DNA from: a virus
Length of the DNA: 36,886 nt
Direction: 5' to 3' (one strand)
Virus record (IMG/VR): IMGVR_UViG_3300007760_000048
Coordinates: 1 to 36,886 of that record
The position numbers and the translations under genes are program-made. Of this stretch, positions 429 to 35,342 are shown one piece after another (position 1 is the first letter of the stretch; every line of letters starts with the position of its first letter). Under the pieces are notes generated by a model. The model was not told the origin of the DNA, made no database searches, and saw only the letters and a list, made by a program, of their open reading frames with translations.

Positions 429-2606
429 CTAGCGTTGGGCTAGCATATCCTCTGCCGACAACCTGAATCCTTTTTTGTATGCGTATTGATCTACGTCGAG
501 TGAAAGTTTAATATTTTGATCTCGTTGTGTTTGTTTCTCTAGAATGTCCGCAAGTTTATCAATTCGCCTATCTTGGGGAGATTTGGTGTCGGGCATTTTA
601 GCGTCTGCTTCAAGTTTCTTATCATAAAACTCCCCAATCTTCTCGCCAATGAGGTTGCCTGCTGCCATTGTTGCGGCGCCGACGAGGGGACCACCAAGAA
701 AGCCGAGGGCTCCAATTCCGGCACCTATCATGCCGCCAGCATTGCCCATGCTACGATCACCGTCGAGCGCATCAAGAAGATCCTTACCAAGCATTCCAAC
801 GCTGGCTATAGGTCCTAGAAATTTACCAGCGGTTAAAGCAAGACCGCCGATGCCAGAAACTCCTGCGGTGGCGCCTTGCAGCGCTGCTGTTGCCATGTTG
901 GGTACTGCGCCAGCGATGTTGCCGCCAGCGACAGCGGTTGCCAGGATGGGTGCAACAACGGCACCTTCTGCAGCACCCATTGCGGCTGCCAAAGCCATGG
1001 CTGCGGCGCCCCCAAGGGCTGTCAGGAAAACACCGCCGATACCAAAGATAAGCGCCTTGATACCGCCGGAGAAACCTTTAAAGAAGTTGAGCATGTCCAT
1101 AAGAGGAGACATCAAGGTGTCATTAAAAAAGCTCTGGAAGGCGTCCATAAATGATTTAAGTATCGTTCGGGTGTCCTGTGCTGCTGTTAACATATCCTTC
1201 TGCATATTTAATTCTTCATCTGCCGCAAGCTCGCTAGCATCTATTTCCCCATTTAAAAAGCGGGTGAACTTGGCGACGTCGCTAAATCCTGCTGCGGCTG
1301 CTGCTGCCTTTACACCAGCTGGCCCAAGTGATTCAACTGACTGTCCTGCAGATGCAAATGAATCTTTGATCATCAGCGCGGCTTTTGCGGGATCCTCAAA
1401 AGAGGCGTTCATAAGCTCGATATTGTCAATGAAGCCGCCGCCGAGAATGGAGTTTAATTTCCCTGCAGCTTGTGCCGATCCTTCAAATGTTTGGAATCCT
1501 TCGGCGAGCGCCAGAACGTCTGAAACTTCTAGTCCAAGCTGGGAGGATGCACTGGCAACTTTCTTGAAAACTTTTTCCATACTGTTTCCGTGAATTGCGA
1601 GGCGTGGTGCGGCATCGGCAAACGACTGCATCATCTTTGGGGCGCCCATACCTATCTCATCGCCAAGTGCCATGATTCTTCCTTGGAGTCCTCTGGCGTC
1701 ATCGTCAGTCATCTTAAATGAGCGGCGCAACATATCGTAAGAACCAATTGAGTCACCAATCGCAACACCAGACTTTTGCCACAGGGCAAACTGAGCTGAA
1801 ATCTCAGTAGATAGTTCTCCTAGCTCCCTGGTTGGGAAGACACTCATTAACTGGGCTTGTGCTGCGCCGGCGTCTGTCATGGTAACACCAAGTTCGCGGT
1901 AGGCTTTGCTGCTTTCCATCACCTGTTCCGTCAATTTCTTTGAGGCACCGGTAGATTGAACAAAGGATGTCATCCCCTCTTCCAATTCGCTGAATACATT
2001 TCTGAAACCTAGAAGACTTGTCTGAACAAGTTTCTGAATCATTGATTCAGCAATGTTTGAAACGGTATACGTCTCTTTCAGACGAGCCGCAAATTTTTGC
2101 TGCTCCTTGGAGCTCTTGAAGAGGGCACCAACCTGTCCCACGAGGGTGGTGTTGAAGCTGCGGGAAACACCAAGCAGTGTATCCATCTTATCGGCAACAC
2201 CATCTGCCGATCCCTCGTATTCCTGCCATGCCCTTCTGGTCCTATCAATCTTTATTTCAAGGACACCGAGAGCTTTTGCCATCTTTTGTTGAATTTTGGC
2301 TCTGTCCTCGTCAGATTTTGCGTCTTCGAGGTCGAGCTCAAACTTCTTTTTCGTGATCTCATACTCTTGCTCTGCCAACTGATAGCCGATGCGCTTCTGT
2401 TCGTTGACGTCTGTCTCGATGGCAAGCTGTTTTCTCAGAAGTTCTGCGCGTTGCGCTGCGGTCATGGACGAGTCGCCAAGATCAGAAGCAAGACGAGATG
2501 TGCCTTCGCCCTTTTCTTTTTTCTCTTTTCTATCTTCCGATAGCCCTTTCTCCATCTTCGCAATAGATGAAGCTAGCGCTGTTAAGACGTCTTCCAACTG
2601 TGCCAC
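429..2606 (-). CDS. Tail tape-measure protein
   Basis: 725 residues, starting at GTG (2604-2606) with AGGAGAG seven bases upstream; the next ATG would lose conserved-looking sequence. Tape-measure proteins fill the tail tube, set its length and are released at injection. The N-terminal 130 residues are charged and coiled-coil-like. A long helical central part follows. Roughly residues 515-665 contain Ala/Gly-rich hydrophobic segments (for example FGIGGVFLTALGGAAAMALA) typical of tape measures that insert in the host membrane. The C-terminus is again charged. Its place after sheath, tube and gp26-like genes fits. T4 fills this role with gp29, but I see no clear residue-level match to gp29, so the call rests on architecture and position. 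An internal virion protein of another type is the alternative. Confidence 0.75.
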   Translation of the reverse strand: MAQLEDVLTALASSIAKMEKGLSEDRKEKKEKGEGTSRLASDLGDSSMTAAQRAELLRKQLAIETDVNEQKRIGYQLAEQEYEITKKKFELDLEDAKSDEDRAKIQQKMAKALGVLEIKIDRTRRAWQEYEGSADGVADKMDTLLGVSRSFNTTLVGQVGALFKSSKEQQKFAARLKETYTVSNIAESMIQKLVQTSLLGFRNVFSELEEGMTSFVQSTGASKKLTEQVMESSKAYRELGVTMTDAGAAQAQLMSVFPTRELGELSTEISAQFALWQKSGVAIGDSIGSYDMLRRSFKMTDDDARGLQGRIMALGDEIGMGAPKMMQSFADAAPRLAIHGNSMEKVFKKVASASSQLGLEVSDVLALAEGFQTFEGSAQAAGKLNSILGGGFIDNIELMNASFEDPAKAALMIKDSFASAGQSVESLGPAGVKAAAAAAGFSDVAKFTRFLNGEIDASELAADEELNMQKDMLTAAQDTRTILKSFMDAFQSFFNDTLMSPLMDMLNFFKGFSGGIKALIFGIGGVFLTALGGAAAMALAAAMGAAEGAVVAPILATAVAGGNIAGAVPNMATAALQGATAGVSGIGGLALTAGKFLGPIASVGMLGKDLLDALDGDRSMGNAGGMIGAGIGALGFLGGPLVGAATMAAGNLIGEKIGEFYDKKLEADAKMPDTKSPQDRRIDKLADILEKQTQRDQNIKLSLDVDQYAYKKGFRLSAEDMLAQR

Positions 2607-2621
2607 TGATTAACTCTCCTA

Positions 2622-2954
2622 TTATTTAAACGGCCACTTGAGCCCAGTTGTTCTCTCGAACTTTTTCACTGCTGAGTCTAGTGAATATCGACTACGGTAC
2701 GTCTGAGGGTTGTCTAGTCCGAACTTACTGTAAGTATCGAGATACCTCTTTTCTCTTCCTAGCACTCGCGCAAAGTCTTTTACTTGAGTTTGGCTTCCTC
2801 GCACCGTAACAGGTATTGATCCTCCGCCAAACATGTGATTCATGATGCCCTTTATGGCGCCACCAAACATCCTAAGATAGCTTTCGTTCACCTCGCCACG
2901 CGAGTGTGCGCCGAGATCAATAACGTATTCTTGTAATTCTTTGTTTTCTTCCAT
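2622..2954 (-). CDS. Small tail-region protein of unknown function
   Basis: 110 residues, begins MEENKELQEYVIDLGAHSRG. The start ATG has the strong leader CCTTGGAGG nine bases before it. I do not recognise a family. The middle is Gly-rich (MFGGGSIPVTVRG) and the C-terminal half is basic and helical; no signal peptide or membrane segment is visible. It lies between the gp26-like/frameshift gene and the tape measure, 16 bases from the latter, and is the first gene after a terminator (3001-3043) and an ACTAnTTA box (2991-2998). By position it may be a tail-assembly or hub protein, but that is inference. Confidence 0.7.
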   Translation of the reverse strand: MEENKELQEYVIDLGAHSRGEVNESYLRMFGGAIKGIMNHMFGGGSIPVTVRGSQTQVKDFARVLGREKRYLDTYSKFGLDNPQTYRSRYSLDSAVKKFERTTGLKWPFK

Positions 2955-3000: not shown

Positions 3001-3043
3001 ATATAAAAAAATAGAGAGGACTTATAAGGGTTCTCTCTATTTT
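3001..3043 (-). terminator. Intrinsic terminator after the gp26-like frameshift gene
   Basis: On the minus strand AAAATAGAGAG and CTCTCTATTTT (3033-3043 and 3008-3018) form an 11-bp perfect stem with a 14-base loop, followed by a T-rich tail (TTTATAT). The TAG stop of the frame ending at 3037 lies within the first arm, so translation to this stop would compete with hairpin folding. Confidence 0.8.
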
Positions 3044-3225
3044 CTCTTTCTGGATGCCTCTGTGACAGCCTCGTTTTCCATTTCTTTTTGTTTTTGTAGT
3101 CTCCGCAAAAACCACCTTCTAATTTGAATCGGGAGAGTGTATGCCTCTGCAAAACTCCAGTGCCCGAAGTATTTTAAAGCGAAGATCTCTTCATATACGG
3201 ATTCTATGTACCTATGATCGAGGCC
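3037..3225 (-). CDS. Frameshift-encoded C-terminal extension of the gp26-like protein
   Basis: A frame that overlaps the end of the gp26-like gene in the +1 register and has no credible start of its own. The only in-frame start-like codon ahead of the conserved part is a TTG at 3286-3288 without a Shine-Dalgarno, and the first in-frame ATG is near the C-terminus. After the shift it supplies 62 residues beginning GLDHRYIESVYEEIFALKYF and containing SFAEAYTLPIQIRRWFLRRL. This looks like the small helical tail-assembly proteins encoded at this place in T4-like phages, where peptides of the type EAYNLP..LRRWF are common (from memory). The product would be a 351-residue fusion made alongside the 293-residue short form. 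The alternative is an independently initiated small protein. Confidence 0.6.
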   Translation of the reverse strand, partial: GLDHRYIESVYEEIFALKYFGHWSFAEAYTLPIQIRRWFLRRLQKQKEMENEAVTEASRKRK

Positions 3226-4093
3226 AAAAAAAGTCCGTAGTGACAGGAACCTCCAGGTCCTGTCGGTGGGTGCATGAATTACACACAAATTCTTGTGTCA
3301 AATCAATGTTGGGGACTAACTTCTGATATATTCCCCGGAGGTATCGAGAGTCCATGGCTGGCATGTTCTCCACGAAATTGTTAATAGATGTTCTATCTCT
3401 TTGTTCTGCCACCGAAATAATAATAGACTTCAGGGTATCGGTGAGTGATGTAGATCCTTCGTCTTTTGATTTTTCCTTTTTAGCAAGGAATTTTTGTAGT
3501 CGTGTTTCGTCGGCCCCGGTCAGCATTTTCAGCTCAACCGAATAGCCACTCTTTGGGAGTGTCAAAATAAAGGTATTTTGTTCCGTAAAATCAACTGCCT
3601 CTATCTTCTCATTTAAGTCATCTCTGTTGAACGCGGCTCCAACTGTTGCCACTTCTTCCAGATCAAATTCAAATTCTTGGGAGGCGTCGCATGCTGGGCA
3701 TGTTACCTGCGTAGCATACTCGGAACCATAGCCAGTGATGCGAGCCGCAACAGTAAGAGCGTTTTTGTCTCCCACTAACAAGTCTTTTATCTCAATATCT
3801 TTATCGATAAGAAGGCTCTGAAGCATTCTGTCGAGGACAATTCCCTTGCGAATGAGGGACTGAGAGGCGAGGATATCCTCTTCCTTCGCTGTCATGTGTT
3901 TAATCTCAACTGTCTCCGTTGCGTGAAGCGGGTGCCCTTCGGGGTAATAAAGCCCCTTTGAAGGGAGATCCACAAACTCGGTGGGAACCGAAAAGTTTAA
4001 TGCTTGAGGTGCTTCTTTTGTTTCTGCTGGGATATCCAGCTCAGGGGCTTCTGGTGTTTTAAGCCTCTTCTGGTTGTTTCTTGTTGATGACAT
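3212..4093 (-). CDS. gp26-like baseplate/tail-assembly protein (short form)
   Basis: 293 residues. The segment NFSVPTEFVDLPSKGLYYPE followed by HMTAKEEDIL and LLVGDKNAL is typical of the T4-type base plate protein family (gp26-like), which includes larger homologues in marine T4-like phages. Two CxxC pairs (C132/C135 and C271/C274) could bind zinc. The ATG at 4091-4093 is preceded by AAGGGGTGA. The gene lies just after the tube gene and before the tape measure, where other contractile or long-tailed phages encode tail-assembly chaperones with frameshifted long forms. The zero frame ends DFFWPRS at a TAG four codons after a run of seven T, where a +1 shift would join it to the next frame. Family is fairly sure; a chaperone role is inference. 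Confidence 0.75.
   Translation of the reverse strand: MSSTRNNQKRLKTPEAPELDIPAETKEAPQALNFSVPTEFVDLPSKGLYYPEGHPLHATETVEIKHMTAKEEDILASQSLIRKGIVLDRMLQSLLIDKDIEIKDLLVGDKNALTVAARITGYGSEYATQVTCPACDASQEFEFDLEEVATVGAAFNRDDLNEKIEAVDFTEQNTFILTLPKSGYSVELKMLTGADETRLQKFLAKKEKSKDEGSTSLTDTLKSIIISVAEQRDRTSINNFVENMPAMDSRYLRGIYQKLVPNIDLTQEFVCNSCTHRQDLEVPVTTDFFWPRS
3226..3232 (-). other. Candidate +1 programmed ribosomal frameshift site
   Basis: The minus strand reads GAC TTT TTT TGG CCT CGA TCA TAG in the zero frame. Skipping one T after the second TTT gives GGC CTC GAT and enters the downstream frame, which stays open to 3037. Phe-tRNA can re-pair with TTT one base on, and the zero-frame A-site codon is the singly decoded TGG. 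A GGAGG lies 17 bases upstream, further than the spacing of the prfB type. Programmed frameshifts in tail-assembly genes upstream of the tape measure are well established, mostly -1, with +1 known in SPP1. Confidence 0.55.
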
Positions 4094-4132: not shown

Positions 4133-4705
4133 TTATGAGCGTGGTACCGTATCAAAAAAGGTGAGTGTACCGGTGCCATCCGCGTTCGGAGTTGATAGTT
4201 CTGCCCAATCATACCGAATCTGAAGCTCGATAGTGCTCAAGTCATCCGTCTCATAGGTAAGTTCACTAAAGTTTACCGATTCAATCCAGGCATTGTTTAA
4301 TACCCACTCCTCCAAGACATCAGTATCTGACTCTCCGATTTGTTTAATTGAAACGCGCCCCATGGCGCCAGTTGCTTGACGCTTGTTGATCGTCGTGATG
4401 GGTGCATTTTCGTTTCCTGGTACCGAATACCCCGACGCGGCTAAAATCTCGGCGGCTTGGGCTGCAGCGTTTGGATCAACAGGATCCACCAGTGTGATCG
4501 TTACAGTTTCCCACGTTACCCGTCCTGGGTAATTAAAGGTGTGATTGATATATTTGTGCTCAGTGTTGCTGACAGTGAACTTTGGCTTTGTGGCGGATTT
4601 AGCATACCAAATCGCGCCGCCACCGAATTCCGACAACGTAACTGTAAATCTATATGCCCTCTTCGGGTCTTTATTAGGACTTGTCCAAAAATTTACACCT
4701 GCCAT
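4133..4705 (-). CDS. Tail tube protein (gp19-like)
   Basis: 190 residues, begins MAGVNFWTSPNKDPKRAYRF. Forms the inner tube of the contractile tail. The N-terminal NKDPKRAYRFTV, the Lys/Phe-rich strand TKPKFTVSNTEHKYINHTFN, the YPGRVTWETVTITLVDP strand and the acidic WIESVNFSELTYETDDL strand match the T4-type tail tube family (Phage tube gp19). Length is near the T4 protein's 163 residues. The ATG follows GAGGAGG at good spacing. It lies 52 bases after the sheath gene, the usual order. A gap of 39 bases separates it from the gp26-like gene. Confidence 0.92.
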   Translation of the reverse strand: MAGVNFWTSPNKDPKRAYRFTVTLSEFGGGAIWYAKSATKPKFTVSNTEHKYINHTFNYPGRVTWETVTITLVDPVDPNAAAQAAEILAASGYSVPGNENAPITTINKRQATGAMGRVSIKQIGESDTDVLEEWVLNNAWIESVNFSELTYETDDLSTIELQIRYDWAELSTPNADGTGTLTFFDTVPRS

Positions 4706-4757: not shown

Positions 4758-7595
4758 TTAATCATCAAAAGATGCCCCAGTTCTTTGAATAATAAAGTCA
4801 ATGGCAATAAATTCAATTGATCTTGCTGGCTGCAAGAAAATCTTTGCATACATAATATTCCGATCAATTAAGTCTGGAGTGGTAGTGGTATCATCCAAGA
4901 CAATCTTATATGCTGTCAACCCTAGTTGGGCTTTGACATCTCTCAAGAAAGGCTCTGCTTTGCCAAGGAAACGTGCCCACGTTGTTTGCACGTTCTGATC
5001 AAACAGGAGTGTCGAAGCAATGTTCGAGATACCTTTTTTGACGTGAATCATCATACGACGAACGTTCACTCTGTCAAGCGCAGATGGAGTGGCTTGCATT
5101 GTCTTCTGTCCGAAGATAACAATACCTTCTGCCGGGAATTTAGCGATTGGGTTCACGTTGTTCTCGTAGAGCTTATCGCGCATCTTCCGAGTCAAGTGTT
5201 CGCGTACACCAATCACAGGGATACCCGCTGCTCCGTCTGACAAGCCACCTCTGGTGAATCCTGCCGGGGCAAACCACGGTGCAGACTTCTTATCATTGCT
5301 GGCGAAAGTGCCCAACGCGGCAACTGATGGGGGAACCCAAAAGATTTTACCTGATCCAAATTCATCCTTGGTTTGTACCCACGGATAGTAAGCGCAAGCA
5401 TAACTGCTATTCATAGCGCGATCTTTTAGTGTGGCAACAGTCTTATCTACCGAACCAATGTCTGATAGTCCGTCGGCATTTTCATACGCAGGGACATAGC
5501 CATCTTCCAAATCAATAATTGCCAAGGAATCTGCTCTCTCCTGACATACCGTCACCAAGTGATTGGTTAAAGAAGAGTTGGTGATTCCAGGAATGGCAGC
5601 TGCATTCATCTCAATGAGTTCTGGATCTGCAACTGTATCAATCGCTCGCTTAATGGAGTTGAAGGCGTAACTATCGTTCTCATCCTTGTTTACCATCAGT
5701 GTATTACTCAAAGGATCTCTGTTCTTTACATTGAACCCGTCGAACCCTCCTACCATCGGCATCGTAAAGCGATTGAATCCCGCTTCGAGAGTGCTCTCAA
5801 AAGAGGCGGAAGCATTAACGGGATCAGTGCTTGGTCCCGGAAGAAGTCCACCGGCAGAGAGCGATTTCCCATCTACCCTAAGTCCTTCTTGGTAGTATGC
5901 CTGATTAGACACTTTGGTTGAACTTGAAACATAGGCAATGTTATCCAAACTGAATACAAAAGATTCCTGTGTGGCTGGATCTACCTCTGTTAAGTCTGGC
6001 AACATGCGTGTCAGATCGGCATAAGATGGATCATAGCGGCTGGCACCTCGTTGATCGGTGGTTACTCCCCAATATGCATTGGTTGGATCCGCGAAGCCGC
6101 CAAACGAACTAGAGCTTCTGAGTGGAAGCTGAGGACCTGTCATCATGAACGGGTTGGCTGCGCCGGAGGCTCCTTCAATTCCAGTGCCACTACTAGAGCT
6201 GTGAGGAATTTCAGTAATCCACAGCCCATTGGGATCGGTTCCAAGAGTTCCTGAAACCGTCACATAAGTGTCGGGTCCTCGGAAGCCAAAAGGAATAAGA
6301 GAGGGATCAAGCTCTCCGCTCGTCATCTTGTCGGAAGGAGTTACATAAATGTACTTCGATTTATTGTTATAATCTCCATACTCAATGAAACGTTTCTCGG
6401 ACTTGTTCCACTCGGCGAATTTATCACCAACTTTCACAGCCAAATAGTTAGCGGCTTCGGGATCTAAACTACACCCTGTGAAGCTCTCTAACACACGAGG
6501 GTTGGCGTCGGTGTCGTTTGCATCGCGCACTTCGACGGTAAATGTCCCATAGGGATCATACTCAGGATTTGTGGGAGCCGCAATATCACGAATAGAAATT
6601 TTCACATTCGAGTTGATCCAGCCGCCCGTATCCAAAGCAGTAAATTTAAAAAGATTTGTCATATTTGCTGGCAAGAAAGATTGTGAAAGCCCTATATCCT
6701 GAGAGATTACCCAACCAGTTGATCCCGGTGCGGCATCTTGTTCTCTGGAGCCGCAGCCCTTGAGTGCCACTATAAAACCAACAGCACCTGTTGCGTTCGT
6801 TGCAGCGGAAGTCGGAAGCGTGTCATAAGCATTCCTACCGAAGCTTTCTCCCAAAAAGTATTCAACTTTTGATGGGTTTTTCTCTCCGAGCAATGTAGGA
6901 TTGGTATTGAACTGCTTCCTAATATACATGTCAGAGCTGACACTAAGGTTAAAGGGGACAGTATTTGTGTCTACTCCCAAACCATTTGCAATGATTGCCT
7001 TGAATTGAAAATCTTCGCCGCTGCTCTCAACAAGTTCGCATGCGCCGCCGGCAACAGTTTGAGGTCCTGCCGAACCAGATTGACTCAAACCAGAAAGACG
7101 AATGGAGCCCTCATCCAAATAGAAAATAGCTGCCAAGGTTCCTGTTATTTCCGCCGCTCCAGACGGCTGGTTGGGTGCTATGTAGAGCCCAAATGCTCCG
7201 CCGTTAGAACCAGTTGCTGGGCTGGGGGAATTTGTAGTCTCCCACCCTGCAACGCCTTCTGCGGATGGATCGTCTTCAGAAGCGCCAACGACGCGAACAA
7301 CAGTAAGAGGGGAACCATTCTTTAACCACGCACGAGCTGCATAACCAGCATACATCGGAGTAGTCCGATTGCCATTACGCCAAACATCATCAGTGTTTCC
7401 GCCCGGAACGGGGTTGCCAAAAATCTCGGTGAACTCTAAGAAAGAACTTACCTTTACGGGGCGCAGCCCTGGACCGCGTTCGGCTCTGCCAATAACGACG
7501 GGCCCGACGGCGGCAGGTACCCTATCCAAATGAGATTTATCAATCTCGTCTAAGAAAATTCCGGGTGATACAAATCTAAACTTTTTTGCTGACAT
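4758..7595 (-). CDS. Contractile tail sheath protein (gp18-like)
   Basis: 945 residues, larger than T4 gp18 (659). The N-terminus RFVSPGIFLDEIDKS with GPVVIGRAERGP is the standard sheath start, containing the arm that connects neighbouring subunits. The C-terminal 230 residues (GIVIFGQKTMQ, VRRMMIHVKKGI, FLQPARSIEFIAIDFIIQR) carry the conserved sheath core that packs on the tube. The extra length sits in the middle, with Ser/Gly/Thr-rich segments that are probably surface domains. The ATG has GAGGAG nine bases upstream. A promoter-like region precedes it (7648-7669), as expected for one of the most abundant virion proteins. Directly followed by the tube gene. Confidence 0.95.
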   Translation of the reverse strand: MSAKKFRFVSPGIFLDEIDKSHLDRVPAAVGPVVIGRAERGPGLRPVKVSSFLEFTEIFGNPVPGGNTDDVWRNGNRTTPMYAGYAARAWLKNGSPLTVVRVVGASEDDPSAEGVAGWETTNSPSPATGSNGGAFGLYIAPNQPSGAAEITGTLAAIFYLDEGSIRLSGLSQSGSAGPQTVAGGACELVESSGEDFQFKAIIANGLGVDTNTVPFNLSVSSDMYIRKQFNTNPTLLGEKNPSKVEYFLGESFGRNAYDTLPTSAATNATGAVGFIVALKGCGSREQDAAPGSTGWVISQDIGLSQSFLPANMTNLFKFTALDTGGWINSNVKISIRDIAAPTNPEYDPYGTFTVEVRDANDTDANPRVLESFTGCSLDPEAANYLAVKVGDKFAEWNKSEKRFIEYGDYNNKSKYIYVTPSDKMTSGELDPSLIPFGFRGPDTYVTVSGTLGTDPNGLWITEIPHSSSSGTGIEGASGAANPFMMTGPQLPLRSSSSFGGFADPTNAYWGVTTDQRGASRYDPSYADLTRMLPDLTEVDPATQESFVFSLDNIAYVSSSTKVSNQAYYQEGLRVDGKSLSAGGLLPGPSTDPVNASASFESTLEAGFNRFTMPMVGGFDGFNVKNRDPLSNTLMVNKDENDSYAFNSIKRAIDTVADPELIEMNAAAIPGITNSSLTNHLVTVCQERADSLAIIDLEDGYVPAYENADGLSDIGSVDKTVATLKDRAMNSSYACAYYPWVQTKDEFGSGKIFWVPPSVAALGTFASNDKKSAPWFAPAGFTRGGLSDGAAGIPVIGVREHLTRKMRDKLYENNVNPIAKFPAEGIVIFGQKTMQATPSALDRVNVRRMMIHVKKGISNIASTLLFDQNVQTTWARFLGKAEPFLRDVKAQLGLTAYKIVLDDTTTTPDLIDRNIMYAKIFLQPARSIEFIAIDFIIQRTGASFDD

Positions 7596-7711: not shown

Positions 7712-8608
7712 TTAGGTGCCTTTTTTCCTTTCGGCACTGATACTTTCGGTAGATGTGGAGGTTCTGCGCTCGGAAGGTGGGCAATTTAAAAGTGCAAATT
7801 CGCCCTCATCAAGCATTGTTCTTTCGCGGGGGATTTTAATTTCCACTGCGTTTTCGCGAGTAACAACAGATGGCTTATCTTGATTAGGTCCTTCGCCAAC
7901 CAAATATGCCAAAACTCGAATGCTGATTTGTGACTCATACATGCGCTCATCTTCGCCCATATCCTCCACATTGCTGTCCGAAGAAAACTCGCTATCAATG
8001 AACGCCTCATAAGAGTGTCCATCTTTCTTTACAGTGAAGTAGTTGATATTGCCCGTTCTTGTCATGAATGGTTGCAACAAATCATTCATCTGTTGTTGAT
8101 ATTCTGTACGAACTTTAATAACATAGTTGGCATTAATGGAAACGGGGAATGGTATAGTTATGGTGTTATAGACAATTTTTTCATTCTTCCTCGGAAAGTT
8201 GATTTGCCCTGTAGCTCGCTTAGAATCGGCATTGGCAAAGTTTGCTGTCTTTGTCTGGTTGATTGCTCTGGTGATTTCAAATGCGCCCCCTTTGACGTCG
8301 GGGTTGGGGGGAATGTTTGCCCACGCAACGCCCTTGTCTGTAGGATCCTTCGCAAAACCAGATCTCTCCAGTGATATAAGAGGGAGGATCAGTGCACCTT
8401 CTTTATCTCTCATCTCTTTACTTCTCTTCGACTGATAAGCACGTTCAGCGGAAACCCAGATCACTGGAACTTTTTTGAAGCCTCGATTTGTAAGGGCGTG
8501 GAGGTCCATCTCCTCATTCAACCACTCGAACATCGCCACATCTACAGTTTCGATGGTTGAGGGCTCGTAGGTTACTACTGATACTTCTTCTTTTTTAGTG
8601 CTCGTCAT
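7712..8608 (-). CDS. Tail terminator / sheath stabiliser (gp15-like)
   Basis: 298 residues. T4 gp15 caps the finished tail, stabilises the sheath and joins tail to neck. The protein has the same run of features: KKVPVIWVSAERAYQ, then a LILPLISLERSG strand, TITIPFPVSINANYVIKVRT, the helix QQQMNDLLQPFMTRTG, and late strands MYESQISIRVLAYLVGEG. T4 gp15 shows the equivalent order (ITYASKEHF, LPRINLHLVDFSY, IYELSIFTRYEDD, EQILPYFQP, WSLTFEVNGWMYP). The ATG overlaps the stop of the preceding neck gene as TAATG, implying coupling. It is followed by a weak terminator and then the sheath gene. Gene order 13-14-15 as in T4 strengthens the call. Confidence 0.78.
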   Translation of the reverse strand: MTSTKKEEVSVVTYEPSTIETVDVAMFEWLNEEMDLHALTNRGFKKVPVIWVSAERAYQSKRSKEMRDKEGALILPLISLERSGFAKDPTDKGVAWANIPPNPDVKGGAFEITRAINQTKTANFANADSKRATGQINFPRKNEKIVYNTITIPFPVSINANYVIKVRTEYQQQMNDLLQPFMTRTGNINYFTVKKDGHSYEAFIDSEFSSDSNVEDMGEDERMYESQISIRVLAYLVGEGPNQDKPSVVTRENAVEIKIPRERTMLDEGEFALLNCPPSERRTSTSTESISAERKKGT

Positions 8609-11600
8609 TATTGCTCCTCTTCCTTGCTATAGAAAACGCTAGCATGCCAGTTTCCACCTTCATTAAAATAATATTTTTCCTCTTGCTCAAAATCACCCAC
8701 TGGTGCCGAGCCAGTCTTTCTTAAGTAAATAGCACGTCCACCGTAAGATGACGAATTTTCATGAAGCCCAACAAGAACTGCATAGTCCGCAGGCAACGTT
8801 GCATCCAAACTCAAAATATCACTCATATCGGGATGCAAAGATACTTGGGGCTCCTCGGAGGGACAATCTGAAAAGAAATGTGATGGGTGCCATACGCCAC
8901 CTTCATTGAAGTAAAACTTGCTAGGAATAGCAAAAGGAACCACCGGGTTGGATGAAGTTGCAGCTAGATAAAGAGTTTTACCAGTATAAGAAACTGAGTT
9001 GGTTGCATATTCCTGAAGAATGGCGCGATTAATTCCGCCTTCGCCATCATCAGATATCAGCATGATTCCTGATCCGATGCCTGCGACGGCGATCACCGTT
9101 GAGCTGCCACCAGCTGGCATATTCTCAACCTGATCGCTGAGGGAATCAATTTGTGTCTGCAGTCTGTTCTCTGTCTCCGTTAAGACATCGGGCAAGCCAA
9201 TGACGTTTTCGACGTCAACATAAGAGGCAGTTAGACCAGCAAGAGAGGGCATTCCCGGCGGGGTGTTGAACACAAAGCCTCCGTCATTGGGATCAACCTG
9301 TATTTTGTGTGTTCCTCCAAAAATGATAGAACCAGTAGAAACATATATATCTCTTACTTGCTTATCTATGGTGCCAATGTCATAAAGGTTGCCAGATGCC
9401 GGGGCGATATGTCCGTGGACTTCGATGCCTGATGCCGTTAGCGTGGAAACTGTCATATCATTTCCAACAAAAGAAGATGCGCTCATCGAGCCTGTATATG
9501 TCAGAACGTTGCCTGGGCCAGTGACAGAAAGAGTTCCCACTGCCGTTGTTCCAGAGACAAAATGTAGAGAGGAGCGGCGAACATAAAGGGCATTCCATGG
9601 TTTCAATAGCGCGCCCAGATCATGGCTAAATCGAGAATATGGTAAAATATTACCACTAGAATTTATTGTCCCCTCGAAATTATGAGAATCCAATATTGCC
9701 GATCCAAAATTCGTTGAACGTGAAACGTCAAGAGTTCCGGTGATTTCCCCATCACCTGTAAACTTGCCATCCCAAGAGCCAGTTACGCCGACTAAGCCAG
9801 TGCCAGAACCAACAAAGGCAGAAGCAGACATATCCCCGACAACATCAACGTTGCCCATAAAATTAACCTCGTCTTTGAAAACAGAGGTTCCTCCTGAGCC
9901 GGTTTGCAAGAAAGAACCCGTAAACTGGTGAGTATCTGTAAGAGAGTTGCCAAATGTAGTTGAGCCAGTATATGTAAGAACACTATCATCGCTGATCGAG
10001 AGTGTGCCCACATCCGTTGTGCCAGATACAAAATGTAGAGAACTGTGACCCACATAGAGGGTGCGCCATGGCTTGGATAAAGAGCCAAGATTGTGGCTAA
10101 ATCGGGCGTTGGGTATTAAGTTTCCACTTATGTCTAAGCTTCCCGAAAAGACATGAGAATCTGCGGCATCGGATCCAAAGCTAGTTGAAGTGGAGACATC
10201 CAAAGAACCAGTAATGGCTGCGTCCCCTGTGTGTTGTCCATCCCAATCGCCAGTTACACCAGTGATGCCAGAGCCGTCGCCAAAGAAGGCAGAGGCAGAA
10301 ATAGTAGAAGAAGCAGAAAGCTCAGTGAAGGATGCCGTAACACCATGAACCTCTTTCCACCTCTTGTCCGATCTTCCAAGCATTGAGCCTGTTAAGCCAA
10401 TAGCATCATTATAGGGGGAAAGTCCGCCGTAATCCTCCGTTTCGGTGGCGGTGACTTGGACGCGAACATCTTGGTTCCCGAAAGGGATTTCGCCAAGTGC
10501 ATTCAGGTGCAGCCCCTGTACACCATAAAAACCGCCTACTCGATCCAGTCGCATGACTTCAGTCGGGCTCTCAGGATTAGTGTCCCCCATGTAGAATGTT
10601 GCGACCATTCCGTCGCCGGCATTGAGGGTGTTTTCCGATACAAATTCAAATCCTTTGGCGCCGTCGTTTTTAGTTCTAAGTTGCCCATTGTTTCTAACCT
10701 CGAAGGCTGGTATGCCTCCGTGAGATAAATTGGATGCATGTTGAGCTGATGCACTGCCGACTTGAAGGGATCCCGAAAACTTGTGTGTGTCGGTAGATAG
10801 TTGTCCCATGCGGGTGCTGCCTGAGATGATGACGGTGCCGCTTCCTTCAATCGTTAGGCGTGGTGGCATCGTTGTTGCAAAAGATCCGTAACTGTCTCTA
10901 GTCCTAAAAATTAGAGAGTGGCCAACGGCTTCGTTTTGAATATTCAAATTAGAATTCTGGCCGCTGTTGTCGTATTGCCCTATCTTCGCTTCTCCTGCTT
11001 TGGTTCCATATGGAATTTCTTGTGCCTCCGAAGAAGACGCCACCATATAGATGCCTGGGCTATTGCCTACCGCAACCATAAGTCCCGGATTAATAAAAAC
11101 ACTTTCGTTGTAGTCTGACTTTTTGAAGACGTTGCTACTGAAAAAATCTTGATTGCCCAACTCCACATATCGGGATTCAATAACGGTGCGGCCACCGGCA
11201 GGATTGTTGACACCTCTGTCACCTCTGACTCCAAATACAAGAGCATCTTTCTCGTCTTGCGAGAGACTGCTAGAAGCGGTGCTGCCAGGATTATTAAAAG
11301 GATAAAAATTTTCAAGATTGGCGCCGAACAGGTGCCTATCTTGATTTGAAGATTGCTGAGAGTATAGAAGAAGGGTTCCGGAAGGATCCGCTGGAATGCC
11401 TCGATACCGGTTATCTATCGTAAACCGACCGCAGTAAGGAGGGGGATATTGAACACCTGTAAGTTCCGTTGCCATATGAAGCGCAGTGCTTTTGAACGTT
11501 ATGGAACCGCTAAAAACATGGTCGCCGTATTTGAAATCGGCATTGCCTCCGGTGAGTTCGAAATTGCCGTCGACTACCACGGATTCTCCGCTGGCCGGAG

Positions 11601-13305
11601 TTAAAGTGACATCTCCCGTACTGCAACCAAGTTTGAGGGGGCCATCGCCGGCAACAAAAAAGCTCGTGTCGTCATTATAAATGGCGCCGATCCTTGATCC
11701 ATCGCTTTGGAAATCAATAATACCGCCTGAAAGTTCGTTGTTCAGGGCGAGAGATGTATATCCCCCATAAGAGGGTGGCGACGTCGTGCCAATTCCAACA
11801 TCTCCCATCAAATGTACCTCATCTATAAATGTAGATGTTGCTCCTGAGCCTGTTTGGAGAATAGAACCAGTAAATGTATGAGTGTCTGTCATCAGGTTGC
11901 CAAAGCTCGTTGATCCGGACACATCCAGAGAGCCAGTTATGCCTGCATTTCCATCAAGCTGGCCATCCCAATCGCCTCCTCCTCCTGAAGAGTTGATTGT
12001 TATCTCGTCTGCAGTTGAAGTAAGGGTTATATTATCCCCCTCCACAAGAGTCTTCATGTTGAAATTAATTCCTGTCTTGTTTCTGAATACTCCTTCGCCG
12101 CTCCCCACATTGGACATGGTATTATCAACGCCGTCGGGGGTTATGATGTTGGCATTTTCGCATGCTGTAACTGAGTCTAGATCAAATTCGTTAACAGTTC
12201 CCTCGGCTTCCGAAAGCCTAAAGATGCCTTCACGCGCTCGAATGCAGCTTGCCACCACTTCAAATTTCTCGTCTATCTTCCCGAAAAGGAGCTTGGGCTG
12301 GCCCACAGTAATAATTTCATAAAGAATATTCCCATAAAGAACAAAGTCCCCCTCTCTCACGAAAAGGTTCTGGTCTTCAGTAAGTCTCCTTTTGTGGAAT
12401 TTAACTTCAATGGCTGATTTTCTATCTATACCAAAATTGGTTGTCGTTGTTTCACTCCCTTTCCACTCAACCGCTGCAAATACTCGGATGGGTGGCAAGA
12501 AGGTTTTATTTAGTGCCTCACCATATAATTCATGAAAATCAGAATTGGGGATAGAGATTGGAAAATATACAACCTGCTGGCCCACCACTCGTTCGAGAAC
12601 CTCATCATTAACTTGCTTAACTAAATTTGATTCTTTCCTCCCCGTAAATAGAGGCGGAGGGGGAGTGCCCGGTCTTTCGTATACCTCGCCACAGGGCTGC
12701 TCGCCTGAGCCTCCGGTGCTGGTGGTGTCTCCCGTTAAAACTCGTATTTCTTGGATGGGATCGCATGCGGGGGCTGTTAAGCGCGGATCATCATCTCCGT
12801 CGTCTGCATAAGATTCCGAGGGGAAAGTTCCGTCCCTTGCGCGAACACATTTTGCAGAAATTTCAATCTTTGAATCGGGCTGACCGAACAACAACTTTGG
12901 CTGCGCCAGCTGCACAATCTCATACTTCTGTTCGCCATACTGAATGAAGTCTCCCTCTCTTACAAAGAGGTTTTGGTCTTCGGTAAGGCGACGCTTGTGG
13001 AAGTGGATGGTAACTGAGGACTTCTTATCTATTCCGAAGCCAGTGGTGGCGGTTTCTTCGCCTTCCCATTCAGCGAGCACCTCAACGTGTACTGGTGGCA
13101 AGTAAGTTTTGTTAATTGCTTCGCCATAAAGTGGGTGAAAGTCTGAATACTTAATACTAATAGGATAGTAGAGTATCGAAGTTCCGATTACTCTTTCGAT
13201 TACCTCGTCGGTGACTTGTTTTACAAGATCTTTTTCTTTTTGCCCCGTAAAAAGCGGAGGAGGGGGGGCAGCTGGTTGTTCCCATTTGTTGTCGTTATCA
13301 GACAC
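8608..13305 (-). CDS. Neck protein with two gp14-like domains fused to a long fibre
   Basis: 1565 residues, GTG start (13303-13305) with AGGAGG seven bases upstream. Residues 15-161 and 215-362 are two copies of one domain, each beginning PPPLFTG and holding YGEA.NKT..PP, FGID.KS, HFHKRRLTEDQNLFVREGDF (FHKRR in both) and PKLLFG. The domain matches the layout of T4 neck protein gp14 (GED, FG, KEGDLIYF, FEI, then a strand-rich end). From about residue 395 on it is fibre-like: many TGSLDVSGSTSFG-type beta repeats and two copies of a segment RFSH(N/D)LG.L.KPW..LYV..SSLHFVSGTT. Two copies of a KFYFNEGGVWHPS module close the protein. It lies between gp13-like and gp15-like genes. T4 gp14 is 256 residues, so this is a fusion that would hold fibres covalently at the neck. 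Confidence 0.75.
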   Translation of the reverse strand: MSDNDNKWEQPAAPPPPLFTGQKEKDLVKQVTDEVIERVIGTSILYYPISIKYSDFHPLYGEAINKTYLPPVHVEVLAEWEGEETATTGFGIDKKSSVTIHFHKRRLTEDQNLFVREGDFIQYGEQKYEIVQLAQPKLLFGQPDSKIEISAKCVRARDGTFPSESYADDGDDDPRLTAPACDPIQEIRVLTGDTTSTGGSGEQPCGEVYERPGTPPPPLFTGRKESNLVKQVNDEVLERVVGQQVVYFPISIPNSDFHELYGEALNKTFLPPIRVFAAVEWKGSETTTTNFGIDRKSAIEVKFHKRRLTEDQNLFVREGDFVLYGNILYEIITVGQPKLLFGKIDEKFEVVASCIRAREGIFRLSEAEGTVNEFDLDSVTACENANIITPDGVDNTMSNVGSGEGVFRNKTGINFNMKTLVEGDNITLTSTADEITINSSGGGGDWDGQLDGNAGITGSLDVSGSTSFGNLMTDTHTFTGSILQTGSGATSTFIDEVHLMGDVGIGTTSPPSYGGYTSLALNNELSGGIIDFQSDGSRIGAIYNDDTSFFVAGDGPLKLGCSTGDVTLTPASGESVVVDGNFELTGGNADFKYGDHVFSGSITFKSTALHMATELTGVQYPPPYCGRFTIDNRYRGIPADPSGTLLLYSQQSSNQDRHLFGANLENFYPFNNPGSTASSSLSQDEKDALVFGVRGDRGVNNPAGGRTVIESRYVELGNQDFFSSNVFKKSDYNESVFINPGLMVAVGNSPGIYMVASSSEAQEIPYGTKAGEAKIGQYDNSGQNSNLNIQNEAVGHSLIFRTRDSYGSFATTMPPRLTIEGSGTVIISGSTRMGQLSTDTHKFSGSLQVGSASAQHASNLSHGGIPAFEVRNNGQLRTKNDGAKGFEFVSENTLNAGDGMVATFYMGDTNPESPTEVMRLDRVGGFYGVQGLHLNALGEIPFGNQDVRVQVTATETEDYGGLSPYNDAIGLTGSMLGRSDKRWKEVHGVTASFTELSASSTISASAFFGDGSGITGVTGDWDGQHTGDAAITGSLDVSTSTSFGSDAADSHVFSGSLDISGNLIPNARFSHNLGSLSKPWRTLYVGHSSLHFVSGTTDVGTLSISDDSVLTYTGSTTFGNSLTDTHQFTGSFLQTGSGGTSVFKDEVNFMGNVDVVGDMSASAFVGSGTGLVGVTGSWDGKFTGDGEITGTLDVSRSTNFGSAILDSHNFEGTINSSGNILPYSRFSHDLGALLKPWNALYVRRSSLHFVSGTTAVGTLSVTGPGNVLTYTGSMSASSFVGNDMTVSTLTASGIEVHGHIAPASGNLYDIGTIDKQVRDIYVSTGSIIFGGTHKIQVDPNDGGFVFNTPPGMPSLAGLTASYVDVENVIGLPDVLTETENRLQTQIDSLSDQVENMPAGGSSTVIAVAGIGSGIMLISDDGEGGINRAILQEYATNSVSYTGKTLYLAATSSNPVVPFAIPSKFYFNEGGVWHPSHFFSDCPSEEPQVSLHPDMSDILSLDATLPADYAVLVGLHENSSSYGGRAIYLRKTGSAPVGDFEQEEKYYFNEGGNWHASVFYSKEEEQ
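12220..12663 (-). repeat. Second copy of the gp14-like domain
   Basis: Encodes residues 215-362 of the neck/fibre protein. It aligns along its full length with 12823-13263. The protein match is high, with identical RRLTEDQNLFVREGDF, while the bases have diverged at many third positions, which indicates an old duplication kept by selection. Confidence 0.85.
12823..13263 (-). repeat. First copy of the gp14-like domain
   Basis: Encodes residues 15-161 of the neck/fibre protein. Each copy begins with a Pro-rich lead (APPPPLFTG here, TPPPPLFTG in copy two), so the linker was duplicated as well. Confidence 0.85.
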
Positions 13306-32186: not shown

Positions 32187-35100
32187 CTATTGATTAATAT
32201 GAGCGAATTCGCCCTTTCTGTCTATATCTATTGTCACATCTGCAGAATCTTTTAAACTGTCAAGATGTGAGATCAAAATAACCTTATTAAATTGCACTTT
32301 TATTAAGTCAACAATCCTATTAAAGCCTTCCATGTTATTCTCGTCGAGAGCCGTTCCTGGTTCGTCAAGAATGAAAATATCACCGCGAGGCAGCGTACTT
32401 ACACTGAGTAGTGCCAAACGAATTGCGATAGCTGCCAATGTCTTTTCTGCGCCAGAGCCGAGCTCAATCGGGCGCGGATCAAACTTTGGATGCTTGATCA
32501 AAACATCAAGCTTTCTGCCATCTGTCTCAAGATATATCTCAAAGTCAACAACGTTTGAAAGCACCTTAGATATTTCGGCGTTGATAACGGGGAGCCTTCT
32601 TTTTACAATATCCGAAGATATTCCATGAGGGTGCATGCACTGCAAAAAATAATCATAAGCTGCATACTCTTCCCTCTTTTGATGAAGTGTTGCTCTGTCG
32701 TGCTCCAAAGAGGACAACTTCTCTTCTAAGGAGCCATGAATCTTATAGAGTTTCATTATTTCTTCTTCACATGCATCAAGGCATAGCGCAGAAGAAGAAT
32801 TCTTTTTTTGCTTTCTTTCTCTCTCTCTTAGGAGGAGTTCCAAATTTTCAATAGCTTCGCGGTTTTCTTCATAGATTTTTAAATCCACCTCAAGATCTTC
32901 GATGTGCCTTTCCTTTGAGAGAACTTCCAAAGCAAGTTTTTCAACCAACAAAGATGCCTCAGATACTGCTCTTTCTTTTTGTAGCTTTTTGGTAATAAGC
33001 TGATCATATTTTTCAATCCGAGAGTCCACAGACTCTGGCTCAAGCAAATTTAAGCACCTTTCTTTGTCTTTTCTTTTCGAGGTTATTTCATAAAGCTTTC
33101 CTTCCAAAGACGGCAGTCTCCCCTGAGCAATAGTGGCGTCCTTCAACAACTTACAATGCAAAAATTTGTCTCCGCATGGGACTTCGTTCAATAACGTAGA
33201 CTTTTTCTTTGCTACCTTCAATCGTTCGTGGCTCGTCTTCTCCTCTCCTGATAATTCTCCTAGTTCCTTTTCGAGTCGAACAATTTCTTCTTTTGCTTTT
33301 TTATATTCGTCGACATTAAAAGATGCCAGAAAGCCATTTATCTTCTCAAGGTTTTCAACATCGTCCTTTAAGGACTCCTGGGTGGTGGTGGAAGTTTCAT
33401 TTAAGGAGAACACCTCTTCGGTTAGTCGGGAAATTTGCTTCTTTGAATTTTCTGCGTCAATTATTTCTGCAGGAATAGAATCGATTTGAGATGTGATTGT
33501 TGCAACCTCTTCGTCGATCTCTGCCATTTCTAATTTTATGTTATTGCATTTTTCCTTTTGTTCTTCAAGCTCATTGGAGTTTCTAACAACATCGGCAGCG
33601 CAGGCGCCGATCTCATTGTTGTAATCTCTGCCCTCAAGTGCCTTAACGAGCCCCTTGAGATCTGCAGCTTCTTCCTTCGCCAATGAAAACTTCTCTTCAA
33701 AAAGAATTAAATCCAAAAACTTTGCAAGAATTTCCTTTCTCCTTGTGGAGCCTTCTTTGATGAAAGTTAGAGAATCAGTCTGAGAGGACATCGATGTCAA
33801 GAGAAAATCCTCTATGGTTCCAAAGTATTTTGCAATATTCTTGTCTGTGTTAGATTTCGTTGTACCGTTCAATTCTCTTTCTTCTCCCGAAGGATCTACA
33901 ACTGAAAAATCAACATCAGTCTTTGCCTCATTTGTTGTCTCTCCCTTGAGTCTCTTGACGTACTTCTCCGAACGTCTTTCGATAACATAATCATTTCCGG
34001 CAATATCGATAACCGCTTTGGCGCGGCACTTCTGCCTGTTCTGGTTAATAATGTTGTAAGATTTCCTCACGTTCTTTGTTGTGTTGCTAAACAGAGCATA
34101 ACAAAGCGAGTCAATCGTGCTGCTTTTACCAGAATAATTTTCACCAAAGATACCGACGACGCCCGACAACTTTTCAAAGTCAACGCGATTGCCAACTCCA
34201 TAGTTAAACAAGTTGTCCCACTCAAGGCTCTTAAGTTTCCAGTGGATGTTTCTTGAAACCTCATCCGCTTCTGATGCCGCTATGCTGTTCATTCGTCGGT
34301 TAATGGACAAAACTTCATAAATAGTATCTTCAGGCAATTCAAAATCTCTCAAGTATTCCCTAATCAACTTCTCCTGGGTTTTCTCGTCTCTGAGATCTTC
34401 GCCAAGTGCAGCCCTAATTGCTTCTTCAACATTGCCCACGATGCCGCTCACATTGTTTTGTGTGGTGGTGGACTCTGGATTGAATTTTGTCTGAACAACC
34501 GATTGAGCTTTTCGCATTGCACCAACAGAAATCTGGTTCATAGAGCGAATACGAATTCTAGCTCCTTCCGGAACTTCTGTGTTTTTCGGAACTTTCCCCT
34601 TCGGAGTAAGAACAATAGTTACAAAAGGATTGATATTAAGTATCTGATGGTGGGAGACAGCAAAGGTGTCCTTATCTTCTATTTCCCAAATCAAAAAACC
34701 CTTATCATTGGTTTCGCCATGGTTCTGCTGAATGGTGGAACCACAATACCTCACCCTTCCCTCGTGATCGAGAGATTGATCTGTTTTGTGAATGTCCCCC
34801 AGAAGTCCATAATCAAACTCTTGGAGCACTGAAATATCGATTCCGTGTTCCAGCATGAACCCTGTCTCTGTTCTGCAGCCAGCTACACTTCCATGATAAA
34901 GTGCGATATTAATTTTGCTATCATCTGTTGGTTCGATGATCCAATTGTCCTTATCAAAAACAGAAAGAACGTTTAAAACAATATTATTTCCAATATCATG
35001 TTCCCCAGAATCTTTATATAAAAATACATTTGGATTTTCCATTGCGGAAACAATAGGTGATACCGCGTCTTGCCGACTATCATTCCTCAAGTTGCCATCA

Positions 35101-35342
35101 TGGTTCCCCAATATGACATGCGTCGGAGCAATCTCAGAAAGATTCCTCATGAATTGGGTTATCATATCTACCAACTCTGGTGATATGTCAGTTTTTCGGT
35201 GAGCTATGTCTCCGCAGTGAACAATATAATCCGGCTTAAGCTCTCGAAGTTGCCCATACAAATCCTCGAAAGCTGCCCTATATTGTTTATGAAATTTTAA
35301 ATTGCGTATGTGAGTGTCACTAATGTGTGCAATCTTTATCAT
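32187..35342 (-). CDS. Single-chain Mre11-Rad50-type nuclease/ATPase (gp47-gp46 fusion)
   Basis: 1051 residues. The N-terminal half (1 to about 350) is an SbcD/Mre11 metallophosphoesterase: D9-x-H11 (HISDTHIRN), D45 (CGDIAHR), N80-H81-D82 (LGNHDG), H150 (LYHG), H185 (LGDIHK). The C-terminal part is SbcC/Rad50: Walker A GENYSGKS at 400-407, long coiled coils about 550-900 with a Cys pair C723-x6-C730 at the middle (zinc-hook-like, not the usual CxxC), signature ELGSGAEKTLAAIA near 955, and Walker B FILDEPGTALD near 993. The complex trims DNA ends for recombination-driven replication; T4 encodes it as genes 47 and 46. No stop or frame break is seen at the junction. The ATG has AGGAGAG upstream. 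It is followed by packaging genes and preceded by primase. Confidence 0.93.
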   Translation of the reverse strand: MIKIAHISDTHIRNLKFHKQYRAAFEDLYGQLRELKPDYIVHCGDIAHRKTDISPELVDMITQFMRNLSEIAPTHVILGNHDGNLRNDSRQDAVSPIVSAMENPNVFLYKDSGEHDIGNNIVLNVLSVFDKDNWIIEPTDDSKINIALYHGSVAGCRTETGFMLEHGIDISVLQEFDYGLLGDIHKTDQSLDHEGRVRYCGSTIQQNHGETNDKGFLIWEIEDKDTFAVSHHQILNINPFVTIVLTPKGKVPKNTEVPEGARIRIRSMNQISVGAMRKAQSVVQTKFNPESTTTQNNVSGIVGNVEEAIRAALGEDLRDEKTQEKLIREYLRDFELPEDTIYEVLSINRRMNSIAASEADEVSRNIHWKLKSLEWDNLFNYGVGNRVDFEKLSGVVGIFGENYSGKSSTIDSLCYALFSNTTKNVRKSYNIINQNRQKCRAKAVIDIAGNDYVIERRSEKYVKRLKGETTNEAKTDVDFSVVDPSGEERELNGTTKSNTDKNIAKYFGTIEDFLLTSMSSQTDSLTFIKEGSTRRKEILAKFLDLILFEEKFSLAKEEAADLKGLVKALEGRDYNNEIGACAADVVRNSNELEEQKEKCNNIKLEMAEIDEEVATITSQIDSIPAEIIDAENSKKQISRLTEEVFSLNETSTTTQESLKDDVENLEKINGFLASFNVDEYKKAKEEIVRLEKELGELSGEEKTSHERLKVAKKKSTLLNEVPCGDKFLHCKLLKDATIAQGRLPSLEGKLYEITSKRKDKERCLNLLEPESVDSRIEKYDQLITKKLQKERAVSEASLLVEKLALEVLSKERHIEDLEVDLKIYEENREAIENLELLLRERERKQKKNSSSALCLDACEEEIMKLYKIHGSLEEKLSSLEHDRATLHQKREEYAAYDYFLQCMHPHGISSDIVKRRLPVINAEISKVLSNVVDFEIYLETDGRKLDVLIKHPKFDPRPIELGSGAEKTLAAIAIRLALLSVSTLPRGDIFILDEPGTALDENNMEGFNRIVDLIKVQFNKVILISHLDSLKDSADVTIDIDRKGEFAHINQ

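What the first reader, a model, noticed from the sequence alone, without database searches (positions are those of the whole stretch)
3037..4093. Probable +1 programmed frameshift making long and short forms of the gp26-like tail-assembly protein
The zero frame ends four codons after a run of seven T, while the +1 frame is open from well before it and continues for 62 codons with a conserved-looking helical domain and no usable start codon. The site (TTT TTT TGG) lets Phe-tRNA slip forward while TGG waits in the A site. A two-product gene just upstream of the tape measure is the signature of tail-assembly chaperones. It is established for many phages, usually -1, and +1 in SPP1; I am not aware of it being described for the gp26-like family.
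Basis: partly seen in the sequence, partly recalled or inferred. Interest (0 to 1): 0.78.

Follow-up and report, generated by a model that had tools for sequence, protein, structure and literature searches.

The report
+1 frameshift in phage tail-assembly chaperone
A marine phage gene carries a strongly conserved slippery spot where some ribosomes should skip one base forward, making a short and a long form of the protein that chaperones tail building; the two-form arrangement is known, but the forward direction and a conserved RNA hairpin just before the slippery spot look new.

Summary
The gene is on the minus strand (4093-3212, 293 aa, Pfam T4_baseplate) between the tail tube and tape-measure genes. 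The frame stops four codons after TTT TTT. The +1 frame supplies a 62-aa three-helix domain, predicting a 351-aa long form. In 80 relatives (43-100% identical) every site reads TTTTTTTGG (71) or TTCTTTTGG (9); 79 more distant relatives have TTTTTTTGG (40), TTTCTTTGG (34), TTTCTATGG (4) or TTTCTTTAC (1). All fit one rule: tRNA-Phe slips +1 from UUU to UUU/UUC. Interrupted runs argue against -2 slippage, polymerase slippage and sequencing error. Downstream, 76% of single-base codon differences are synonymous in the +1 frame, 19% and 9% in the others. A hairpin 5' of the site exceeds synonymous-codon expectation. The kind is known: Vladimirov et al. (Virology 2022, second-hand) identified T4-like tail-assembly chaperones. 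The SPP1 parallel is wrong: its +1 shift is in the tail-tube gene; its chaperone shift is -1. Frameshifting is inferred, not measured. Verdict: real, new variant of a known kind. Side lead: predicted -1 shifts join related domains in bacterial contractile injection systems.

The parts
3212..4093 (-). Short form (TAC-N), 293 aa, PF12322 T4_baseplate family, two CxxC pairs
   Evidence: PF12322 E 4.5e-13, 49.8 bits against cut-off 24.5; phrog_150 E 8.9e-15; AlphaFold2 pLDDT 85
3224..3232 (-). Shift site TTT TTT TGG; P-site Phe-tRNA slips +1, base 3226 skipped
   Evidence: Invariant as TTTTTTTGG/TTCTTTTGG in 80/80 relatives; no in-frame T7 at 14,737 other codon positions
3212..3214 (-). Stop codon of the short form, six codons after the start of the site
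   Evidence: Same distance in 70 of 80 relatives, one codon less in the other 10
3040..3225 (-). +1 frame TAC-C domain, 62 codons; long form 289 + 62 = 351 aa
   Evidence: Coding signature of the +1 frame; conserved motif; three-helix model, pLDDT 89.5; related to DUF6760 and to the T4/cyanophage gp51 C-terminus
3037..3039 (-). Stop codon of the long form
3242..3264 (-). Upstream RNA hairpin GACAGGACC-UGGA-GG[U]UCCUGUC, ends 9 nt 5' of the T run
   Evidence: MFE -13.1 kcal/mol; 0 of 120 synonymous recodings fold as well in this sequence; group-wide excess of structure
4133..4705 (-). Tail tube gene, upstream neighbour
   Evidence: phrog_4542 E 2.8e-27
4758..7595 (-). Tail sheath gene, 945 aa
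   Evidence: phrog_23 E 1.5e-64
2622..2954 (-). 110-aa ORF of unknown function between the chaperone and the tape measure
   Evidence: No Pfam or PHROG match
429..2606 (-). Tape measure gene
   Evidence: phrog_167 E 1e-10

Best explanation
The locus encodes the phage's tail-assembly chaperone in two forms. Most ribosomes finish the 293-aa short form (TAC-N). A minority, with peptidyl-tRNA-Phe on a UUU codon of the run UUU UUU UGG C, slip forward one base (UUU re-pairs with UUU, in relatives also UUC) before the next codon is decoded, and continue in the +1 frame to make a 351-aa long form (TAC-NC) that carries a three-helix C-terminal domain. By analogy with lambda gpG/gpGT, the short form coats the tape measure protein and the long form's extra domain recruits tail-tube subunits. 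A hairpin formed by the mRNA just 5' of the site probably favours the forward shift, for example by refolding behind the ribosome. Shown from sequence: both frames, conservation, selection on the +1 frame, excess hairpin potential, homology, gene position. Inferred: that frameshifting occurs, its efficiency, the hairpin's role, and the chaperone function.
For: Site kept in 80/80 close relatives and in a fitting form in all 79 complete group-2 relatives, plus Mel-JY01, SP-15, LIS04, GXN1 and a jumbo phage. All variants allow UUU to UUY re-pairing. +1 frame coding: 76% synonymous against 19% and 9%. Gene sits between tail tube and tape measure here and in immuto, LIS04 and SP-15 (in immuto the upstream gene is annotated as a tail completion protein). 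Homologous long forms exist as single ORFs: T4 gp51 (PF12322 plus C-terminal extension) and a bacterial locus L201 with PF12322 fused to DUF6760 at ...QSFFM/LRL.... Profile comparisons: C-domain against T4/cyanophage gp51 E 1.6e-5, N-domain against gp26/gp51 E 8.2e-5. Upstream hairpin: 24-nt window before the site mean z -2.39, 57% of 54 loci at p<=0.05; other windows mostly 0-11%, 22% six bases away.
Against: No peptide, ribosome-profiling or reporter data. In the window itself a T7 run also permits a -2 shift; only relatives discriminate. Hairpin geometry varies (0-9 nt from the run) and in group 2 the excess of structure is weak (z -0.61), so its role is unproven. hhalign probabilities are modest (79 and 61). 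Foldseek against PDB gives no significant hit; the HK97 chaperone appears only at E 1.6, prob 0.25. Many relatives do have a possible start codon in the +1 frame.
Confidence: 0.85

Rival explanations
1. RNA polymerase slips on the T7 run, helped by the preceding hairpin, and a fraction of mRNAs lose one U (or gain two); ribosomes then read the long form without frameshifting.
For: Hairpin followed by a T run resembles an intrinsic terminator in many loci; run of seven T.
Against: 9 of 80 relatives have only four consecutive T (TTCTTTTGG) and 39 of 79 group-2 relatives have no T run longer than three (TTTCTTTGG, TTTCTATGG, TTTCTTTAC), yet keep the same shift. In the window the hairpin ends 9 nt before the run, not terminator geometry.
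Confidence: 0.06
2. A -2 ribosomal shift, as proposed for phage Mu, gives the same downstream frame with one extra Phe.
For: With T7 the P-site Phe-tRNA could re-pair two bases back; -2 reaches the same frame.
Against: In TTCTTTTGG the -2 codon would be UCU under Phe-tRNA and in TTTCTATGG it would be UUC under Leu-tRNA; neither re-pairs well (sequences).
Confidence: 0.05
3. The downstream ORF is a separate gene with its own start codon; no fusion is made.
For: The window has a TTG 56 nt upstream; many relatives have a possible start in the +1 frame. Cyanophage gp51 is annotated as its own gene.
Against: 16 of 54 non-redundant relatives have no ATG/GTG/TTG before the conserved domain, 29 have no ATG. 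An own start would not explain an invariant slippery run or natural fusions.
Confidence: 0.05
4. Sequencing or assembly error in a homopolymer.
For: Runs of seven T can be misread.
Against: Same frame relation in 159 relatives from independent assemblies, including sites without a homopolymer, and in isolate genomes.
Confidence: 0.01

Closest known systems
T4-like tail-assembly chaperones gp26/gp51 (Vladimirov et al. 2022; T4, P-SSM2, S-PM2)
   Same: Same N-terminal family (PF12322) and related C-terminal domain; short and long forms; frameshift signals already reported for T4-like chaperones (as cited in PMC12846349)
   Different: T4 uses two genes (gp26 short, gp51 long); P-SSM2, S-PM2, HTVC008M and phiM12 place the C-domain in the -1 frame over T-rich runs. 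Here the shift is +1 on a single P-site UUU codon with a 5' hairpin
Lambda gpG/gpGT and SPP1 gp17.5/gp17.5*
   Same: Same gene position and two-form logic just before the tape measure
   Different: Different protein family; -1 shift (SPP1: UUUUUUC, PMC6316719)
Phage Mu -2 shift in its tail chaperone genes (own knowledge; Xu et al. 2004 is cited in PMC5009743)
   Same: Contractile-tail chaperone reaching the same downstream frame as +1
   Different: Site variants here do not permit -2 re-pairing
prfB (RF2) +1 frameshift CUU UGA C
   Same: Forward slip of a P-site tRNA; group-2 sites CUU UGG C differ from it by one base; UUU is among the most shift-prone replacements (PMC10885494)
   Different: No stop codon in the A site, no known autoregulation, a hairpin instead of a close Shine-Dalgarno element
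DUF6760 / 'phage tail assembly protein' pair of bacterial contractile injection systems
   Same: Related two domains in the same order after the tube gene
   Different: There DUF6760 is in the -1 frame over NNG GGG GA or fused

Membership tests
PF12322 T4_baseplate (gp26 family) | Score above the curated cut-off | tested here: met
   49.8 bits against 24.5
Two-form tail-assembly chaperone (TAC-N/TAC-NC) | Gene between tail tube and tape measure | tested here: met
   Tube 4705-4133, tape measure 2606-429
Two-form tail-assembly chaperone (TAC-N/TAC-NC) | Second conserved C-terminal domain reachable by a frameshift near the end of the first frame | tested here: met
Two-form tail-assembly chaperone (TAC-N/TAC-NC) | Homology to the T4-like chaperones gp26/gp51 | tested here: met
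Two-form tail-assembly chaperone (TAC-N/TAC-NC) | Both proteins made, bind the tape measure, absent from virions | not testable with these tools
   Needs proteomics and binding assays
+1 programmed ribosomal frameshift | P-site codon that can re-pair one base forward, conserved | tested here: met
   UUU-Y in all +1 relatives
+1 programmed ribosomal frameshift | -1 and -2 alternatives excluded | tested here: met
   -1 frame closed soon after the site; -2 re-pairing impossible in interrupted-run variants; in the window alone -2 is not excluded
+1 programmed ribosomal frameshift | Stimulatory element | tested here: inconclusive
   Upstream hairpin conserved beyond synonymous expectation; effect on shifting not measured
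Hairpin-stimulated transcriptional slippage | Homopolymer run kept in all members | tested here: not met
   9/80 and 39/79 relatives lack the long run
DUF6760 (PF20546) for the C-terminal domain | Score above the curated cut-off | tested here: not met
   Window domain 16.5 bits against 27; 16 of 20 relatives match weakly, best E 5.4e-5; remote relative, not filed as a member

The most novel reading that the evidence does not exclude
A widespread class of +1 frameshifting in marine T4-like and Bacteroidota phages that needs neither a stop codon in the A site nor a downstream structure, driven by forward slip of a single P-site tRNA-Phe (UUU to UUY) and helped by an mRNA hairpin folding behind the ribosome.
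Probability: 0.4. Interest if true: 0.7.

Novelty: new variant of a known kind. Interest (0 to 1): 0.55.

Why it matters
It extends the tail-assembly frameshift to the +1 direction within one protein family that elsewhere uses -1 shifts, two genes (T4 gp26/gp51) or a fusion, so the family becomes a natural series for how such decoding solutions interconvert. A gp26-gp51 frameshift would explain why cyanophage gp51 looked like a truncated T4 gp51 (noted without explanation in PMC3037559). The conserved 5' hairpin makes a testable hypothesis about what stimulates forward frameshifting. It also points to frameshifting in bacterial contractile injection systems.

Tried and rejected
Polymerase slippage, -2 shift, independent start and sequencing error (see rivals). 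A downstream stimulator: 42-nt windows in the +1 frame show at most mean z -0.7. A Shine-Dalgarno role for the conserved GGAGGT about 20 nt upstream: judged too distant; not pursued. Solved structures by sequence: none for the N-domain, chance-level for the C-domain. Rfam and tRNA scans of the window: nothing. Vladimirov 2022 could not be read. A bacterial genome scan with the N-domain alignment gave one contig, itself probably a phage (L116). Tape-measure binding was not tested.

Full report
Observation. The gene lies on the minus strand at 4093-3212 and codes 293 aa ending ...TTDFFWPRS. The seven T are at 3232-3226; codons are TTT TTT TGG CCT CGA TCA TAG. The +1 frame continues as FF-GLDHRYIESVYEEIFALKYFGHWSFAEAYTLPIQIRRWFLRRLQKQ... 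to a stop at 3039-3037, 62 codons after the shift. The predicted long form has 351 aa. The -1 frame closes soon after the site.

What the gene is. The short form matches PF12322 T4_baseplate (49.8 bits, cut-off 24.5) and PHROG 150. Upstream are the tail tube and a 945-aa sheath protein, downstream a 110-aa ORF of unknown function and the tape measure. This is the usual place of a tail-assembly chaperone. The record is an IMG/VR virus fragment.

Conservation of the site. In 80 relatives at 43-100% protein identity the site is TTTTTTTGG in 71 and TTCTTTTGG in 9, with the short-form stop 5 or 6 codons after the start of the site and a conserved +1 domain. A second group of 80 loci, found with the Flavobacterium phage immuto protein, gives 79 complete sites: TTTTTTTGG 40, TTTCTTTGG 34, TTTCTATGG 4, TTTCTTTAC 1. 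Microcystis phage Mel-JY01, phages SP-15, LIS04 and GXN1 and a jumbo phage also put the domain in +1. All +1 cases share a zero-frame UUU codon followed by a pyrimidine, so tRNA-Phe can re-pair one base forward. The interrupted sites (TTCTTTTGG, TTTCTATGG, TTTCTTTGG) do not fit a -2 slip by the P-site tRNA or slippage of RNA polymerase on a long T run, and they rule out a homopolymer error.

Selection on the +1 frame. Among 54 non-redundant relatives, 76% of single-base codon differences downstream are synonymous in the +1 frame, against 19% and 9% in the other frames. No in-frame T7 occurs at 14,737 other zero-frame codon positions. In 16 of the 54 there is no ATG, GTG or TTG in the +1 frame before the domain; the window itself has a TTG 56 nt upstream. 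Binomial figures for codon bias at the site ignore relatedness of the sequences and are only indicative.

Upstream hairpin. The 24 nt immediately 5' of the run fold more stably than synonymous recodings: mean z -2.39, 57% of 54 loci at p<=0.05; other windows mostly 0-11%, with 22% in the window six bases upstream. A repeat with 36-nt windows gives z -1.52. Register varies: in many loci CCGC...GCGG abuts the run, with CCGU...ACGG in others. In one fixed register pairing is incomplete. In the window's own sequence the hairpin is longer and ends 9 nt before the run (3264-3242, -13.1 kcal/mol; 0 of 120 recodings as stable). Against dinucleotide shuffles of the 45-nt stretch the window's hairpin is not exceptional (z -1.28). 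In group 2 the excess is weak (z -0.61) although Gly codons near the site are GGG in 23 of 34 cases against 6% elsewhere. I found no downstream structure. The hairpin is therefore well supported as a conserved feature in group 1; its effect on decoding is inference.

Relatives with other solutions. T4 gp26 (208 aa) and gp51 (249 aa) both match PF12322, and gp51 has a C-terminal extension related to the +1 domain here (hhalign with cyanophage gp51 included, E 1.6e-5, probability 79%). In P-SSM2, S-PM2, HTVC008M and phiM12 the gp51 domain lies in the -1 frame after a T-rich run ending gp26; RAS14 and Atu_ph07 look similar. Sullivan et al. 2010 noted that cyanophage gp51 lacks the first ~200 residues (PMC3037559); a gp26-gp51 frameshift fusion would account for that.

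Prior knowledge. [quoted passage not shown] I know this through PMC12846349, which cites it for poly-T -1 signals, and PMC10885494, which cites it for separate short and long genes; the paper itself is not held. So the chaperone role and frameshifting in this family are not new. Whether that paper lists a +1 case is unknown to me.

Structure. The +1 domain is predicted as three helices with pLDDT 89.5; Foldseek finds small myovirus proteins of similar fold, with a 'baseplate protein' and a weaker 'tape measure chaperone' further down the list, none with E <= 0.001. The short form is predicted with pLDDT 85; no significant PDB match, the HK97 chaperone only at E 1.6.

Lead beyond the finding. 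The +1 domain is remotely related to DUF6760 (16 of 20 relatives match, best E 5.4e-5; the window's own domain is below the curated cut-off). DUF6760 follows a 'phage tail assembly protein' in bacterial contractile injection loci. In ten loci from five bacterial phyla the first ORF ends NNG GGG GAN or, in Rhodococcus, ACG GGG GGA, and DUF6760 is in the -1 frame across the G run. Three of them, L200, L204 and L206, show no ATG, GTG or TTG before the domain. One locus carries both domains in a single ORF (L201). In Haloferax the two ORFs overlap at ATGA and there is no G run. My limited literature search found no report of this.

Judgement. A +1 programmed frameshift producing a long chaperone form is the best-supported reading (0.85). 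Nothing here measures frameshifting. Novelty is that of a variant: new direction and a conserved 5' hairpin in a family already known to make two forms.

Noticed in passing
L200, L202-L209, L211 (contractile injection loci): Short 'phage tail assembly protein' ORF ends at a GGGGGA run with DUF6760 in the -1 frame in ten loci from five bacterial phyla; predicted -1 frameshift making two chaperone forms in contractile injection systems.
   Followed up: partly
L201:859-1626: Single ORF joining PF12322 and DUF6760, a natural counterpart of the frameshift product.
   Followed up: yes
L108, L109, L110, L112 (P-SSM2, S-PM2, HTVC008M, phiM12): The gp51-like domain lies in the -1 frame just after a T-rich run ending gp26, suggesting a gp26-gp51 fusion by -1 shift; would explain the short cyanophage gp51.
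   Followed up: partly
L117-L196: In immuto-like phages Gly codons near the site are GGG in 23 of 34 cases against 6% elsewhere; may be stem pairing or a ribosome-binding-like element.
   Followed up: partly
window 32187-35342 (-): One 1051-aa ORF matches both SbcD-like (residues 1-354) and SbcC-like (212-1047) families, suggesting a fused SbcCD nuclease.
   Followed up: no
window 8608-13305 (-): 1565-aa ORF with only a marginal head-closure match.
   Followed up: no
window 2622-2954 (-): 110-aa ORF without family match between chaperone and tape measure.
   Followed up: no
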